This document shows positions 44,018 to 61,236 of a stretch of 64,000 nt of DNA, one piece after another. The position numbers and the translations under genes are program-made. The notes below the pieces were generated by a model. That model made no database searches, was not told the origin of the DNA, and saw nothing but the letters and a program-made list of their open reading frames with translations. Every line of letters begins with the position of its first letter. Position 1 is the stretch's first letter. Origin of the DNA: an uncultured Gammaproteobacteria bacterium (GTDB lineage Bacteria > Pseudomonadota > Gammaproteobacteria > Steroidobacterales > Woeseiaceae); the NCBI GenBank assembly GCA_937899415.1, contig CALBPI010000062.1:124001-188000 (forward strand). The letters run 5' to 3'.

Positions 44018-46000
44018 TTACTCGCCGCCGCTGTCTTCCTGCATGATATCGGCAGGTGGCTGTGTTGGTGGAGTGTCGCGCACCTGCTCTTCAAGTGGCG
44101 GCAGCGTCGGGCGCACAGCGTCACGAATGAGCGGTACGCTTCGGTCACCCTGCTGCAGGTTGCGCAGGTAGTTGTACTTCTCGCCCGTCACCTGCATCGA
44201 GCCGATGCCATCGAGAAGGATCTTGGGTTTGATGAAGACCATGAGGTTGGTCTTGATCTTCTCCGAGGTGCGAGAGCGGAACAGGTTGCCGATGATCGGA
44301 ATGCTGCCCAGCACGGGTACGCGCTGATCGGTCTCGAGCACCTGGTCGTCAATGAGGCCGCCCAGCACAAGGATGCCGCCATCCTCGACGATAACCGAGG
44401 TCTCGATGAGGCGGGTGTTTGTGATCAGGTCGACGGCGCCGGCGCTGGAGCTCAGGCTTGAGATCTCCTGAGTGATCTCGAGCAAGATCGTGCCGTCGTC
44501 GGTGATCTGCGGTGTGAGCTGCAGGTTGGTGCCGACCTGCTCGCGGTTGACGGTCTGGAACGGATTCACGGCGCCGGCGTTGTTGCCGCCCGTGTTGGTG
44601 AACTGGCCCGTGATGAACGGCACTTCCTGACCGATCTCGATCTTCGCCTCTTCGTTGTCCATCGTGACGATGACGGGCGTCGAGATCACGTTCGTATTGG
44701 CGTCGCCCTGCAGCGCATTGAGGATCGCGGCAAAACTCACACCCGAATCCGATATGCGGCCCACTCCTAACGTGATGCCCTCGGAGATCGCGCCGGCCAG
44801 GGCTGCGGCATCGTTACCTTCGCTGGCACCGGCCAGCGGCACGATGCGGCTGCCTGCGGAGGCGAAGTCCGTAACGCCCACAATATTGTCGTCGTTGCTG
44901 CCATCGAGTGCCCAGGTCACGCCCAGCTGCGAGTCGCGGTTGATGTTGACCTCGACGATCAGAGCCTCGACGAGCACTTGTGCTCGGCGAATGTCGAGCT
45001 TGTCGACGACCGACATGATCGAACGCATCGACGCGGGCGGTGCCGTGATGACGAGTGCGTTGGTGATTTCATCGGCCCAGATGTTGACCTCAATGTCTGC
45101 GTTCGCCGCCGTCTCCTGGCCCTCGGCACTCTGTACCTGGCCCTGCAGCTTACCCGCGAGGTCTTCTGCGTTGGCGTATTTGAGGTAGCGTACCTGGGTG
45201 TCGCCACCGGCTTCGCGCGGCGTATCGAGATGTGCGATGAGTGTGCGGATCTTGACGCGGTCAGCGGGTACGCCGCTGATGAGCACGCTGTTGGTGCGCC
45301 CGTCAGCGACGAGGTTTATGGGTGCGCTGGCACCCGCCTCGACGCGGTTGCCGCCGTTGAGCGCGTTGATCGTCGTGACGATGTCTGTGGCCGACGCGTA
45401 GGTCAGCGGCACCACCTCGACATCGGCGTCGATGGGCCTGTCAATCTGGCGCAGCAGGTACCGAATCCGATTCACGTTGCGCTGCGTGTCGCTGATGATC
45501 AGCGAGTTTGAGCTGGCCTGCGCCGCCAAGTGGGCGTTGCTGGGAAGCAGCGGACGCAAGACCGGCACCAGCTGTGCGGCCGACACGTTTTCGACACGCA
45601 ACACCGTGGTGACCGTCTCGTCGGCAAGCGCGCCCGTGACATTGGCCGGCGCCTGGCGCGCGTTGGCGTTGGGTACGATGCGCGTCACGCTGCCCGCTTC
45701 GATGGCCACGAAGTTGTTGACCTCGAGCAGCTGCAGGAAGGCCAGGTAGAACTCCTCGGCGTTCATGGGCTCGCTGGCGATGAGCGTCACTTTGGCATTG
45801 ACGCGCGGGTCGACGATGAACGTGCGGCCCGTGGCCATTTGCACCGCATCGATAACCGCCTTGATATCGGTCTCACGATAGTTCGGCGTGATTTCATCGA
45901 TGCCCTGCGCCAGGACGCCTTGTGCGGTGGTCAGCGCAGTGGCAAGCGCCAGTGCTGCGACGATCAGGCGCTGCCGGGGCGCGCGTTGCGAGTGGTTCAT
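44018..46000 (-). CDS. gspD: Type II secretion system secretin GspD
   Basis: Signal peptide; N0/N1 domains; EEAKIEIGQEVPFITGQ; IVEDGGILVLGGLI. Confidence 0.95.
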   Translation of the reverse strand: MNHSQRAPRQRLIVAALALATALTTAQGVLAQGIDEITPNYRETDIKAVIDAVQMATGRTFIVDPRVNAKVTLIASEPMNAEEFYLAFLQLLEVNNFVAIEAGSVTRIVPNANARQAPANVTGALADETVTTVLRVENVSAAQLVPVLRPLLPSNAHLAAQASSNSLIISDTQRNVNRIRYLLRQIDRPIDADVEVVPLTYASATDIVTTINALNGGNRVEAGASAPINLVADGRTNSVLISGVPADRVKIRTLIAHLDTPREAGGDTQVRYLKYANAEDLAGKLQGQVQSAEGQETAANADIEVNIWADEITNALVITAPPASMRSIMSVVDKLDIRRAQVLVEALIVEVNINRDSQLGVTWALDGSNDDNIVGVTDFASAGSRIVPLAGASEGNDAAALAGAISEGITLGVGRISDSGVSFAAILNALQGDANTNVISTPVIVTMDNEEAKIEIGQEVPFITGQFTNTGGNNAGAVNPFQTVNREQVGTNLQLTPQITDDGTILLEITQEISSLSSSAGAVDLITNTRLIETSVIVEDGGILVLGGLIDDQVLETDQRVPVLGSIPIIGNLFRSRTSEKIKTNLMVFIKPKILLDGIGSMQVTGEKYNYLRNLQQGDRSVPLIRDAVRPTLPPLEEQVRDTPPTQPPADIMQEDSGGE

Positions 46001-46944
46001 TGAGTGGCCTGGTCCGAAAAGTCGAGTGAGCTCGTGTCGAGCGTTAGGTTTTGTTGTTGGCCGCCACGCTCGAGCGTGACGGAAATGCTCTGGGCATTGC
46101 CCAGCTCACTGAAAACGCGTGCGCCCTGCGAAGGGTTATTAAGCGGTGTGCCGTTGATGGCCGTCACGATGTCACCCGGGCGCAGGCCGAGCTTGGCGAA
46201 GCTCTGCCGGTCGGAGCCCGGGTAGAGCCGGTAGCCGCGCTGTTGCCCGCCCACGTAGTAGGGCCGCGGCGAGATGATCTGGGTGAACTGTGCCGCGTTT
46301 TCCGTGAGGACCTGGGTCATCGACGGGCCACTGGCGCGGCGAATGCTGGTGCGGGAGCGGTTGGCCTGCGGTGCAATGCCTGCGAGTTCTTCGGGTTTCG
46401 GTAGTTTTAGGGATTCGAAAGCGCCACTGCGACTGAGTATCACCTGTTCACGTCGCACCGAGTGCAAGGTTAGGCCCGGGCGAACGGTGTCGCCGATTGC
46501 GAAAACACGTTCATCGCGACCGTCTGCGATGATGGCGAGCGCATTTTCGTCGGAGTCCGCAGCCAGGGTGCCCTTAAGCGTCAGAGGTTCACGGGTTTCA
46601 GGTACGTCTACAGGCGGCGGCGGACCGCAATCGGGCGGACAGTTCTTTTTAATCTCCTCCGCCACCCCGAACAGGCTAGCTTTGATGATGGCAGAGACAT
46701 CGGTAGACGCAGCCGCGATCTGCCCGGAGTCACTCGACGCAGGCGCCAGCGCCACAGGCGGCGCAATGTTGGCATCCGCGCGAGCGGGCAGCAGGGCGAC
46801 CACAAGCCCGGCCAGTTGCCAGGCGATCACGATCGCTAAAAGCAACGCCGCGAGCCCGGGGCCGCGTCGCTGCATGGTGGTCAGCCACGGTTGCTGACCC
46901 AGGCGTTGGAACCGGTCCAACGCGTCCGCGCCACTCATCGCCAT
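45997..46944 (-). CDS. gspC: Type II secretion system protein GspC (HR and PDZ domains)
   Basis: LFGVAEE...EPLTLKGTLAADSDENALAII, GYRLYPGSDRQSFAKLGLRPGDIVTAINGTPL. Confidence 0.9.
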   Translation of the reverse strand: MAMSGADALDRFQRLGQQPWLTTMQRRGPGLAALLLAIVIAWQLAGLVVALLPARADANIAPPVALAPASSDSGQIAAASTDVSAIIKASLFGVAEEIKKNCPPDCGPPPPVDVPETREPLTLKGTLAADSDENALAIIADGRDERVFAIGDTVRPGLTLHSVRREQVILSRSGAFESLKLPKPEELAGIAPQANRSRTSIRRASGPSMTQVLTENAAQFTQIISPRPYYVGGQQRGYRLYPGSDRQSFAKLGLRPGDIVTAINGTPLNNPSQGARVFSELGNAQSISVTLERGGQQQNLTLDTSSLDFSDQATQ

Positions 46945-47650: not shown

Positions 47651-49978
47651 ATGCTGAACAGTGAATTGGAGTTCTGCCTCAACGAGGCATTCCAGTCAGC
47701 ACGTGACCAACGGCATGAATTCATGACTGTTGAGCACTTGTTGCTCGCGATCCTCGATATCCCCGAGGTTTATGACCTGCTGCGCGCCCTCGAAGCCGAC
47801 ATTAACCGGTTGCGGCGCGAGCTCAATGAAGTGATTGGACAAACCACGCCCCGTCTCGGCGAAGACGTCGACCAGGAAGTGCAGCCCACGCTGGGATTCC
47901 AGCGCGTCGTGCAGCGCGCCGTGTTCCACGTGCAGTCGAGCGGCAAGAAAGAGGTCACGGGCGTCAACGTGCTCGTGGCGATCTTTAGCGAAAAGCAGTC
48001 GCAAGCCGTCTACCTGCTCAACCTCCAGGACATCACGCGTCTCGATGTCGTCAATTACATCTCGCACGGCGTCAGCCGCGCCGGAGAGTACGGCGAAGAG
48101 GGCGAGAGTATCGGTACCACGAGCGAGGGCGAGGACGGCGAGGCGCCGCGCTCGGCACTCGACGAATACGCGACAAACCTCAACAGCGAGGCGGAGTCAG
48201 GCCGTATCGACCCGCTTATCGGCCGCACGCTCGAAGTCGAGCGCACGATCGAGACCCTCTGCCGCCGCCGCAAGAACACCCCGCGGTACGTGGGCGAGGC
48301 GGGCGTGGGCAAGACGGCCATCGCCGAAGGCCTGGCGCGGCTGATTGTTGAGGGCGAGGTGCCCGAGGTACTCGCCGACGCGACGATCTACTCGCTGGAC
48401 ATGGGTGCACTCGTCGCGGGCACCAAGTACCGCGGCGACTTCGAGAAACGACTCAAGGCCGTCGTCAAGGAGCTCTCTGAGGAGCCCAACTCGGTGCTGT
48501 TTATCGACGAGATCCACACCATCATCGGGGCCGGCGCCGCCTCGGGCGGTGTTATGGACGCCTCGAACCTCATCAAGCCCGTGCTGGCCAACGGCCGGCT
48601 TCGTTGCATTGGTTCCACGACCTACCAGGAGTACCGGGGCATTTTTGAGAAGGACCACGCACTCGCGCGGCGCTTCCAGAAGATCGATATCCCGGAGCCC
48701 TCGGTCGAGGAGACGGTGCAGATCCTCGCGGGGCTGCAAAGCCGCTTCGAAGCCCACCACGGCGTGCGCTACGACAGTGATGCCCTGCAGGCCGCTGCCG
48801 AGCTTGCGGCGCGGCACATCAACGACCGGCACCTGCCCGACAAGGCCATCGATGTCATCGACGAGGCGGGCGCGAACCTGCGCCTGCAGCCTGAGGCCAC
48901 GCGGCCCGAGTCGGTGACGGTCCAAGCCGTGCAGAACATTGTCGCGCGCATGGCACGAATCCCTCCAGCCAGTGTGTCGGTGTCGGACCGCGCCACGCTG
49001 CGCAACCTCGAACGCGACCTCAAGATGGTCATCTTCGGTCAGGACGCGGCTATCGAGGCGCTCTCCTCATCGATCAAGATGGCGCGCTCGGGCCTTAACG
49101 ACGACGAGAAGCCGGTCGGCTCGTTCCTGTTTGCCGGCCCAACGGGCGTGGGCAAAACCGAGGTCACGCGTCAGCTCGCAGCCTCTTTGGGCATCGAGCT
49201 GCTGCGTTTCGATATGTCGGAATACATGGAGCGGCACACGGTGTCGCGTCTGATCGGCGCCCCCCCGGGCTACGTCGGTTACGACCAGGGTGGTCTGCTT
49301 ACGGAAGCCGTGAACAAGAACCCGCACGCGGTCGTATTGCTCGACGAGATCGAGAAGGCGCACCCCGAGGTCTTCAACCTGCTGCTGCAGGTCATGGACC
49401 ACGGCACACTGACGGACAACAACGGTCGCAAGGCCGATTTCCGCAACGTGGTCCTCGTGATGACGACCAACTCGGGCGCGCAGGAAATGAGTCGCGCCTC
49501 GATTGGCTTCACGCAGCAGGACCACACGAGCGACGGCATGGAAGTCATCCGCCGCACGTTTACGCCGGAATTCCGCAACCGACTGGACGCCATCATCCAG
49601 TTCGAGCCGCTGGACCCGCATTCGATTGCTCGCGTCGTCGACAAGCTCGTCGTCGAACTCGAGGGTCGCCTGCTGAGCTCCAACGTCACGCTGGAACTTA
49701 CAGACGAGGCGCGCGACTGGATTGCAGACCGCGGCTACGACAAGTCGATGGGTGCCCGCCCCATGGCGCGCATCATTCAGAAGTACGTCAAGCGCCCGCT
49801 GGCTGATGACCTGCTGTTTGGCGAACTGTCAGAGGGCGGGCACGTGCGCGTGTGTGTCGTTGACGGCGAACTCAAGCTCGAGTTCGAGCGCCAGACACCG
49901 CGGCTGACGCACCAGTCCGCGGAATCGGGTGATGCGTCAGATGCGCCTTCGGATGAACCACAGGAACCCGGCGCCTGA
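47651..49978 (+). CDS. clpA: ATP-dependent Clp protease ATP-binding subunit ClpA
   Basis: MLNSELEFCLNEAF; GEAGVGKTAIAEGLA; FAGPTGVGKTEVTRQLA. Confidence 0.97.
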   Translation: MLNSELEFCLNEAFQSARDQRHEFMTVEHLLLAILDIPEVYDLLRALEADINRLRRELNEVIGQTTPRLGEDVDQEVQPTLGFQRVVQRAVFHVQSSGKKEVTGVNVLVAIFSEKQSQAVYLLNLQDITRLDVVNYISHGVSRAGEYGEEGESIGTTSEGEDGEAPRSALDEYATNLNSEAESGRIDPLIGRTLEVERTIETLCRRRKNTPRYVGEAGVGKTAIAEGLARLIVEGEVPEVLADATIYSLDMGALVAGTKYRGDFEKRLKAVVKELSEEPNSVLFIDEIHTIIGAGAASGGVMDASNLIKPVLANGRLRCIGSTTYQEYRGIFEKDHALARRFQKIDIPEPSVEETVQILAGLQSRFEAHHGVRYDSDALQAAAELAARHINDRHLPDKAIDVIDEAGANLRLQPEATRPESVTVQAVQNIVARMARIPPASVSVSDRATLRNLERDLKMVIFGQDAAIEALSSSIKMARSGLNDDEKPVGSFLFAGPTGVGKTEVTRQLAASLGIELLRFDMSEYMERHTVSRLIGAPPGYVGYDQGGLLTEAVNKNPHAVVLLDEIEKAHPEVFNLLLQVMDHGTLTDNNGRKADFRNVVLVMTTNSGAQEMSRASIGFTQQDHTSDGMEVIRRTFTPEFRNRLDAIIQFEPLDPHSIARVVDKLVVELEGRLLSSNVTLELTDEARDWIADRGYDKSMGARPMARIIQKYVKRPLADDLLFGELSEGGHVRVCVVDGELKLEFERQTPRLTHQSAESGDASDAPSDEPQEPGA

Positions 49979-50045: not shown

Positions 50046-50264
50046 CTAGCGACCGCGGTAGACGATACGGCCTTTGCTCAGGTCGTAGGGTGTCAACTCG
50101 ACCGTGACCTTGTCGCCGGTCAGGATACGAATGTAGTGCTTGCGCATCTTGCCTGAGATGTGCGCGGTCACCGTGTGACCGTTCTCAAGCTCCACGCGAA
50201 ACGTCGTGTTGGGCAGCGTGTCGATGACGACGCCTTCCATCTGAATGGCTTCTTCCTTTGCCAA
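50046..50264 (-). CDS. infA: Translation initiation factor IF-1
   Basis: (M)[74 protein letters not shown] start. Confidence 0.97.
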
Positions 50265-50337: not shown

Positions 50338-51042
50338 TTACGCCAGCGCTTCCGAAATGGGGGCCGGTTGCCAGGCTTTCAAGCGCGTGCAGCACTGACC
50401 CAGCAGCTCGCAAAACGCCCGCCGGGGCAGGGTGGTGGCACCCAGCGTTTCCAGGTGGGCCGTGTGCATCTGGCAATCGAGTACCGCGAAGCCGTCGCGT
50501 TCGAGCAGCGTGCACAGATACCAGAGCGCGAGCTTCGAGGCGTCGGTAAGCCGGTGGAACATCGACTCGCCGAAAAAGGCGCCGTCGATGGCAACGCCGT
50601 AGATGCCGCCTACGAGCTGTCCATTGCGACAGACCTCGACACTGTGGGCCCATCCGGCCTGATGCAGGTCAACATAGGCCCGCCGCATGGCGGGTGTGAT
50701 CCAGGTGCCTTCCTGGCCTGGGCGCGACTCGGCGCAGGCATCGATAACGCCCTCGAAATCGCGATTGGTTGTGAACGACCAGTCACCGCGTCGTAGCGTC
50801 CGTCGCAGTGAACGGCTCGCGTGAAAGTCCTCGGGCCGCAGCACCATGCGCGGGTCCGGGCTCCACCAGAGGATGGGCTGGCCCTCGCTGTACCAGGGGA
50901 AAATGCCGCGCTGGTAAGCGGCCAGTAGCCGTTCGACAGCCAGGTCGCCGCCTGCTGCGAGCAGCCCGTTGGGCTCGTCGAGCGCCGATTCCGGGTCGGG
51001 GAAACCCACGCCGGGCTGGGTGCCCAGCCAGTACAGGCTCAC
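50338..51042 (-). CDS. aat: Leucyl/phenylalanyl-tRNA--protein transferase
   Basis: [69 protein letters not shown] start 51042. Confidence 0.96.
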
Positions 51043-52205
51043 GACGCATCCCCGCTGTCGACGGCGCGAAACGGCGAGTGACCATCGATGTAGCGCATGT
51101 ACTGGTCGACGCCCGCGGCCTCGCGTTCGATGTAGTCGCCGATGGCGGCTGCGAACTGCGGGTGGGCGAGCCAGTGCGCTGATGCGGTGCGCACAGGCAG
51201 GAAGCCGCGTGCCACTTTGTGCTCGCCTTGCGTGCCGGGCTCGAAGCGCGTGATGCCCTCGTTGATGCAGTGCTCGATACCCTGGTAGTAACAGGTTTCG
51301 AAATGCAGGCTGTGGTAGTCGCGGTCGCTGCCCCAGTAACGGCCGTAGAGGCTGTCCGCGCCGCGCAACAGGATGGCTGCGGCGACGTTGCGTTCCCCGT
51401 GCCGCGCTAGTACGACCTCGAGCGCCTCGGGCTTGGTGTCGCGCAGCGTCTGGAAGAACTCGAGGTTCAGGTAGGGCGTGTGGCCGCGCGCGGCAAACGT
51501 GTAACTGCACAGGCGCCAGGCGTCGGCCAGATCGGCGTCGCTGATCGCCGTTGCGCGAAGGTCGTCGGGACGAATACCCGCCTCGGCGACGCGCCGGCGT
51601 TCGCGGCGCGCATTCTTGCGTTTTTTGCTCGTGAACGCGGCCAGAAACTGATCGAAGTCCGTGTAGCCCGCGTTGTGCCAGTGGAACTGACAGTCCTGGC
51701 GCAGGATCATGCCCGCGGCCTCGCAGGGCGCGCATTCGTCATCGGCGATGAATTGCAGGTGCAGCGACGGAAAGGACTGCTCGCGGGCGAAAGACAGTAC
51801 GGCTGTGAGTATAGCCTTGCGAATCGCCGCCGCGTCGTCGCCGGGCGCCACGCAGAGCTTGCTGGCCGTGGCCGGCGTGAAAGGCGTCGCGCTCACGAGT
51901 TTCGGGTAGTACTCGAGCCCGGCGCGACGGTAGGCATCGGCCCAGCCCCAGTCGAATACGAATTCGCCCCAGGAGTGGGCCTTCTGGTAGAGCGGCATGA
52001 CGCCAACGAGCGCATCGCCGCGCTCGACGGTGACGTGGCAGGGCAGCCAGCCCGTGTCGGTTGAGACGCTGCCCGATGTCTCGGCTGCGTCGAGAAACGC
52101 GTGTGACAGGTGCGGCAAATCGGGCGCCACGAGGGCGTCCCAGTCGTCGGCACGAATGTCGGACATGGCGGCCTGAAACCGCACGATCAGGCGTTGTTGC
52201 GCCAT
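51039..52205 (-). CDS. FemAB-like/DUF482 (COG3146-type) predicted N-acyltransferase, GNAT fold
   Basis: HLSHAFLDAAETSGSV, FVFDWGWADAYRRAGLEYYPKLVSATPFTPATASKL, SKKRKNARRERRRV, RGHTPYLNLEFF, RYWGSDRDYHSLHFETCYYQGIEHCI. Confidence 0.88.
   Translation of the reverse strand: MAQQRLIVRFQAAMSDIRADDWDALVAPDLPHLSHAFLDAAETSGSVSTDTGWLPCHVTVERGDALVGVMPLYQKAHSWGEFVFDWGWADAYRRAGLEYYPKLVSATPFTPATASKLCVAPGDDAAAIRKAILTAVLSFAREQSFPSLHLQFIADDECAPCEAAGMILRQDCQFHWHNAGYTDFDQFLAAFTSKKRKNARRERRRVAEAGIRPDDLRATAISDADLADAWRLCSYTFAARGHTPYLNLEFFQTLRDTKPEALEVVLARHGERNVAAAILLRGADSLYGRYWGSDRDYHSLHFETCYYQGIEHCINEGITRFEPGTQGEHKVARGFLPVRTASAHWLAHPQFAAAIGDYIEREAAGVDQYMRYIDGHSPFRAVDSGDAS

Positions 52206-57073: not shown

Positions 57074-61236
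<4,163 letters not shown>

What the first reader, a model, noticed from the sequence alone, without database searches (positions are those of the whole stretch)
50338..52205. FemAB-like/DUF482 transferase coupled to aat inside the clpS-clpA-infA N-degron cluster
Gene order is clpS-clpA-infA-aat-[DUF482]-ftsK-lolA-rarA-serS. In Pseudomonas the comparable island has ate (arginyl-tRNA-protein transferase) and trxB between infA/aat and ftsK; here those are absent and a FemAB-like predicted N-acyltransferase occupies the slot, with its stop overlapping the aat GTG start (GTGA, 51039-51042). FemX/FemAB and Aat share the GNAT-type aminoacyl-tRNA-dependent transferase fold. Inference: this protein may be an aminoacyl- or acyl-transferase acting in N-degron tagging or protection, i.e. 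an unrecognised branch of the ClpS/ClpA pathway.
Basis: partly seen in the sequence, partly recalled or inferred. Interest (0 to 1): 0.7.

Follow-up and report, generated by a model that had tools for sequence, protein, structure and literature searches.

The report
Uncharacterised transferase translationally coupled to aat
A conserved enzyme of unknown function, shaped like enzymes that move amino acids from tRNA onto other molecules, is kept right beside the bacterial N-degron tagging gene aat in much of the Gammaproteobacteria; it does not replace the tagging gene ate, but it is a good candidate for an unrecognised step of that protein-degradation pathway.

Summary
A 388-aa PF04339 (FemAB_like/DUF482) gene at 51039-52205(-) overlaps the aat start by 4 bp (GTGA) inside clpS-clpA-infA-aat-[PF04339]-ftsK. 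The genome has no Ate/Bpt homologue.

PF04339 neither replaces ate nor anti-correlates with it. In 140 gammaproteobacterial families, 69 of 84 PF04339 genomes have ate, against 14 of 56 without PF04339. Many loci read PF04339-aat-ate-infA, so ate's slot is on the other side of aat.

PF04339 lies directly upstream of aat in 50 of 82 families that carry both, and 25 of 35 named relatives share the stop/start overlap. PF04339 almost never occurs without aat (2 of 84), and this holds within genomes that carry an unrelated control gene. In Alphaproteobacteria it lies within 12 kb of clpS in 32 of 75 genomes.

The predicted structure (pLDDT 95) is a tandem GNAT; its best PDB matches are tRNA-dependent transferases (FemX, streptothricin peptide synthases, MprF). 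Donor, acceptor and any effect on N-degrons are untested. Alpha- and betaproteobacterial contexts point elsewhere, so function stays open.

The parts
51039..52205 (-). PF04339 (FemAB_like, DUF482, COG3146) protein, 388 aa, predicted tandem-GNAT transferase
   Evidence: Pfam 459.5 bits over 367/369 positions; AlphaFold2 model pLDDT 95.1, pTM 0.92
51216..51230 (-). Conserved QGEHK motif (residues 326-330); K330 is the proposed counterpart of FemX Lys305
   Evidence: Q, G, H and K invariant in 72/72 sequences, E in 71/72; K330 aligns next to the YK lysine of a PF13480 protein; spacing matches N325/F328/K329 of DhpH-C described in PMC12945691; correspondence inferred
51582..51629 (-). Strongly basic helix between the two GNAT domains (residues 193-208, SKKRKNARRERRRVAE)
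   Evidence: Helix 193-208 in model; R196 and R203 invariant
51039..51042 (-). GTGA overlap: PF04339 stop / aat GTG start, predicted translational coupling
   Evidence: overlap conserved in 25 of 35 adjacent relatives
50338..51042 (-). aat, leucyl/phenylalanyl-tRNA-protein transferase, GTG start
   Evidence: TIGR00667 215 bits against 143.55 cut-off; PF03588 253 bits
50046..50264 (-). infA (IF-1), apparent TTG start
47651..49978 (+). clpA
   Evidence: TIGR02639 1087 bits
47233..47622 (+). clpS
   Evidence: NF000669 157 bits; PF02617 123 bits
52267..54600 (+). ftsK, divergent from PF04339 (61-bp gap)

Best explanation
The gene encodes a cytosolic tandem-GNAT transferase of the FemX/MprF-like structural class. 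It is co-expressed, by translational coupling, with the L/F-transferase Aat. The most likely role is an accessory amino-group transferase of the ClpS/ClpA N-degron pathway. It would take an aminoacyl (or acyl) group, most likely from aminoacyl-tRNA, and transfer it to an amine in the cleft between the two GNAT domains, with K330 in the place of FemX Lys305. The substrate would be a protein or peptide N-terminus that Aat does not use, either to create or to mask an N-degron. It works alongside Aat and Ate/Bpt, not instead of Ate. Shown here: gene identity, coupling to aat, near-restriction to aat+ genomes, proximity to clpS in a second class, predicted fold, and conservation of the putative active-site motif. 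Inferred: donor, acceptor, catalytic lysine and pathway role.
For: Direct upstream adjacency to aat, same strand, in 50 of 82 families with both genes. By comparison, aat and its known pathway partner ate are within 2 kb in 59 of 83 genomes. Stop/start overlap conserved in 25/35. 82 of 84 PF04339 genomes have aat and 83 of 84 have clpS. The aat link persists within genomes that carry the unrelated control glnE: 77/77 against 20/26, p=1.6e-4. In the 14 control genomes PF04339 occurs only where aat and clpS occur: Caulobacter vibrioides and Synechococcus elongatus. In Alphaproteobacteria it is within 12 kb of clpS in 32/75 genomes, 13 of 20 families. Structure: the top ten PDB matches are FemX, the aminoacyl-tRNA-dependent peptide synthases Sbb17/Sba18 and the soluble domain of MprF (E 1.5e-13 to 1.4e-10). 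No CoA P-loop motif [QR]xxGx[GA] in the window protein, and at most 8 of 72 sequences have one at any position. QGEHK motif invariant or nearly so.
Against: Alphaproteobacterial operon partners are RidA, a GDPD phosphodiesterase and a HIT protein, and clpS-clpA there is mostly convergent rather than co-transcribed. In Betaproteobacteria the gene sits by nadE and glnB, not aat. 24 of 106 aat genomes lack PF04339, and E. coli lacks PF04339 in the control set although its N-degron pathway works. Genome reduction explains part of the co-occurrence, since glnE also correlates with aat. Acetyl-CoA tandem GNATs (VipF, Eis2, ORF14) also match the fold. Sequence profiles show no significant FemX match and no relation to Aat beyond the shared PF13480 profile.
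Confidence: 0.42

Rival explanations
1. A housekeeping aminoacyl- or acyltransferase acting on a small molecule or lipid head group. It sits beside aat through old, stable gene order and shared expression rather than shared function.
For: MprF soluble domain and A-PGS are close structural matches. Alphaproteobacterial operon with RidA, GDPD and HIT, and betaproteobacterial context with nadE/glnB. Silencing the cotton homologue GhACNAT changed fertility and fatty-acid gene expression (PMC4488762), though no substrate was seen in the passages read.
Against: The stop/start overlap with aat is kept across many families. PF04339 rarely exists without aat.
Confidence: 0.33
2. A CoA-dependent N-acetyltransferase that caps N-termini and so shields proteins from Aat/ClpS.
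For: Tandem-GNAT acetyltransferases VipF, Eis2 and ORF14 are among the structural matches. Plasmid homologues are annotated 'GNAT family N-acetyltransferase'.
Against: No conserved CoA P-loop motif. tRNA-dependent enzymes score better.
Confidence: 0.15
3. A peptidoglycan interpeptide-bridge transferase, as the Pfam title suggests.
For: Closest fold is FemX.
Against: No PF02388 match for the window protein at E<=10. Found in Gram-negative bacteria that do not build FemX-type bridges (established knowledge), and a COG3146 homologue is present in Arabidopsis (PMC3223725).
Confidence: 0.05
4. A replacement for Ate/Bpt in lineages that lost ate.
For: The window genome lacks ATE_C, and 13 sampled families have PF04339 and aat without ate.
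Against: PF04339 is more common in ate+ than in ate- genomes, also within aat+ genomes. PF04339-aat-ate operons are common. Ate's slot is downstream of aat.
Confidence: 0.03

Closest known systems
FemX of Weissella viridescens (FemABX family, Ala-tRNA-dependent)
   Same: Tandem-GNAT fold, best PDB match (7z6a, E 1.5e-13, TM 0.54/0.61); lysine in a comparable C-terminal position (K330 against Lys305; inferred)
   Different: 10-13% identity; no PF02388 match; no significant sequence-profile match; gene context not peptidoglycan
Streptothricin peptide synthases Sbb17/Sba18, and DhpH-C
   Same: Tandem-GNAT, aminoacyl-tRNA-dependent; high structural score for Sbb17/Sba18; DhpH-C residues N325-F328-K329 have the spacing of Q326-H329-K330
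   Different: About 12% identity for Sbb17/Sba18; those act in antibiotic biosynthesis
MprF / A-PGS soluble domains (lipid aminoacylation)
   Same: Tandem-GNAT, aminoacyl-tRNA-dependent; E 1.4e-10 and 2.8e-10
   Different: No membrane-spanning flippase part; no lipid link shown
Aat (L/F-transferase) and Ate/Bpt
   Same: Encoded in the same operon; GNAT superfamily, both Aat and PF04339 match PF13480 above its cut-off
   Different: Not a family member: no PF03588 or PF04377 match; profile comparison with Aat probability 0.4%
At2g23390 / GhACNAT (plant COG3146 homologues)
   Same: Same COG (PMC3223725); detected in a soluble chloroplast preparation (PMC3531887)
   Different: Substrate unknown. 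A 2010 study found no L/F-transferase gene in Arabidopsis (PMC2988409), so any plant partner would have to differ

Membership tests
PF04339 FemAB_like / DUF482 | Full-length match over the curated cut-off | tested here: met
   459.5 bits against 27, positions 2-368/369
FemABX (PF02388) | Match to the family profile | tested here: not met
   No PF02388 hit for P0001 at E<=10
FemABX (PF02388) | Double GNAT fold | tested here: met
   AlphaFold2 model and Foldseek match to FemX
FemABX (PF02388) | Catalytic lysine (FemX Lys305) | tested here: inconclusive
   Invariant K330 in QGEHK; equivalence from motif spacing and a profile alignment to a PF13480 protein only
FemABX (PF02388) | Use of aminoacyl-tRNA and a MurNAc-peptide acceptor | not testable with these tools
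   Needs biochemistry
Aat (PF03588) | Leu_Phe_trans profile | tested here: not met
   No match; hhalign probability 0.4% to the window's Aat
Ate/Bpt (PF04377) | ATE_C profile | tested here: not met
   No PF04377 match anywhere in the genome
Acetyl-CoA-dependent GNAT | P-loop motif [QR]xxGx[GA] | tested here: not met
   Absent from P0001; at most 8 of 72 sequences have it at any one position
XrtA/PEP-CTERM FemAB (TIGR03019) | Score over the curated cut-off | tested here: not met
   25.5 bits against 260.35
Bacterial N-degron pathway component | Conserved genomic coupling to aat/clpS/clpA | tested here: met
Bacterial N-degron pathway component | Alters N-termini or stability of ClpS substrates | not testable with these tools
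   Needs N-terminomics and ClpS trapping

The most novel reading that the evidence does not exclude
PF04339 is a third bacterial aminoacyl-tRNA-protein transferase, beside Aat and Ate/Bpt, with its own amino acid and its own class of N-termini. It would define a new set of N-degrons or N-terminal shields. The family persists in plants, in which no Aat gene was found, where it could supply N-terminal tagging in plastids.
Probability: 0.25. Interest if true: 0.85.

Novelty: new variant of a known kind. Interest (0 to 1): 0.58.

Why it matters
Only two transferase families, Aat and Ate/Bpt, are known to make bacterial N-degrons, and natural substrates of the pathway are few (general knowledge). 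A widespread gene that travels with aat, has a FemX-like fold and lacks any assigned substrate is a concrete, testable candidate for a missing step. Searching the held library for PF04339, COG3146, DUF482 or At2g23390 found no paper linking the family to the N-degron pathway. The one published function test we found rejected a predicted pterin-dependent activity for the Xanthomonas member (PMC3223725).

Tried and rejected
Replacement of ate: rejected on counts and geometry. Peptidoglycan transferase: no PF02388 match. Direct homology to Aat by profile: not found. Sequence search of the PDB, single and profile: nothing significant; a 0.0099 match to a glucosyltransferase and weak FemX matches do not count. 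Mapping FemX residues through the genome's PF13480 paralogue against the PDB failed. Plasmid copies (Pseudomonas aeruginosa, Azospirillum, Sphingomonas) showed no aat or clpS nearby and gave no functional clue.

Full report
What is there. The window (a genome of 3.94 Mb, 98.4% complete, whose relatives are Gammaproteobacteria) carries clpS(+), clpA(+), then on the minus strand, in transcription order, PF04339-aat-infA, divergent from ftsK-lolA-rarA-serS. PF04339 is 388 aa and matches the Pfam family over its full length. Its TGA overlaps the GTG of aat. The genome has one full-length PF04339 gene plus one sub-threshold match, which is a PF13480-type protein on another contig. It has no ATE_C match.

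Survey in the class. 140 genomes, each carrying a different family label, were searched for PF04339, ATE_C, aat and clpS (counted). Genomes with full-length or near-full-length PF04339: 84. Of these 82 have aat, 83 have clpS and 69 have ate. PF04339 lies directly upstream of aat on the same strand in 50 of 82. In 19 of the other 32 the two genes are on different contigs, and in 13 they are farther apart on one contig. For comparison, aat and ate are within 2 kb in 59 of 83. Genome reduction is a confounder, so an unrelated control gene, glnE, was searched in the same genomes. glnE correlates with both aat and PF04339, but within glnE+ genomes all 77 PF04339 genomes have aat against 20 of 26 others (p=1.6e-4). 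Within aat+ genomes glnE no longer predicts PF04339 significantly (p=0.11). No tree-based correction was made, so these p-values overstate the independence of the families.

Relation to ate. PF04339 and ate are positively associated (69/84 against 14/56). Within aat+ genomes it is 69/82 against 14/24, p=0.011; within aat+ glnE+ genomes the trend is the same but not significant (p=0.12). In named relatives the order is either PF04339-aat-ate-infA (for example Thiocystis L044, Chromatiaceae L061, Competibacteraceae L078) or PF04339-aat-infA as in the window (Woeseiaceae L038, L039, L051). The window therefore shows a lineage that lacks ate, not a substitution.

Coupling. In 35 adjacent relatives where a start could be assigned, 25 have the PF04339 stop overlapping the aat start, most often by 4 bp. 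Start codons were assigned by position, not by experiment.

Outside this arrangement. In Alphaproteobacteria the gene is in a cluster with RidA, GDPD and HIT genes, in part of the sampled loci convergent to clpS-clpA(-azlCD). Of 75 such genomes with both positions listed, 32 have clpS within 12 kb (13 of 20 families). In Betaproteobacteria it lies next to nadE and glnB. A P. aeruginosa plasmid carries a homologue with no aat nearby. In the 14 control genomes, PF04339 occurs in Caulobacter vibrioides and Synechococcus elongatus, both with aat and clpS; only the former has ate.

Structure. An AlphaFold2 model from 72 natural sequences has mean pLDDT 95.1 and pTM 0.92. Foldseek against the PDB ranks FemX, the aminoacyl-tRNA-dependent peptide synthases Sbb17 and Sba18, and the soluble domain of MprF as the ten best matches; A-PGS and DUF2156 follow, mixed with acetyl-CoA tandem GNATs. 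TM-scores of the ten best are moderate (0.47-0.55 by query length), so this fixes the fold class, not the reaction. Aat is not among the 50 matches listed. A CoA P-loop motif is missing, QGEHK (326-330) is invariant but for one E, and G288, R289, W291 and G292 are invariant. A review gives Lys305 of FemX and N325/F328/K329 of DhpH-C as active-site residues (PMC12945691). Q326/H329/K330 have the same spacing, and K330 aligns next to the YK lysine of a PF13480 protein. This equivalence is a proposal, not a structural superposition.

Literature. COG3146 was once predicted to be a pterin-dependent enzyme, and the Xanthomonas protein failed the test (PMC3223725). The plant homologue At2g23390 was detected in a chloroplast soluble fraction, though listed with an M (mitochondrial) prediction (PMC3531887). 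The cotton homologue affects fertility and fatty-acid gene expression when silenced (PMC4488762). No L/F-transferase gene was found in Arabidopsis (PMC2988409). GNAT-fold transferases that use aminoacyl-tRNA are known to include the Fem ligases, MprF and the N-end-rule transferases (PMC2922099). No held paper was found that ties PF04339 to N-degrons; subscription literature was not covered.

Verdict. The association with the N-degron genes is real and broad in Pseudomonadota; the ate-replacement idea is wrong. The most likely role is an accessory, probably tRNA-dependent, amino-group transferase of the pathway (0.42), with a metabolic or lipid transferase as the main rival (0.33).

Noticed in passing
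window 50046-50264 (-): infA appears to start with TTG; no ATG lies at the conserved IF-1 start.
   Followed up: partly
window 58381-60834 (-): A MscS-type mechanosensitive channel carries a C-terminal AHSA1 (activator of Hsp90-like) domain, an unusual fusion.
   Followed up: no
window 44018-46944 (-): Type II secretion gspD and gspC lie next to clpS.
   Followed up: no
L075: A contig filed under a Phycisphaerales MAG carries a ftsK-PF04339-aat-ate block typical of Gammaproteobacteria; probably misbinned.
   Followed up: no
L133 (NZ_CP042268.1 54001-75119): A P. aeruginosa plasmid, pHOU1-1, carries a block of housekeeping-type genes that includes a PF04339 gene, as if a chromosomal segment had been captured.
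   Followed up: no
L113-L132: In Alphaproteobacteria PF04339 clusters with RidA, GDPD and HIT genes, an operon whose logic is unexplained.
   Followed up: partly
G088:C16:5329-5845: aat in this sampled genome is split into two matches in different frames, possibly a frameshifted gene; that genome has no PF04339 match listed.
   Followed up: no
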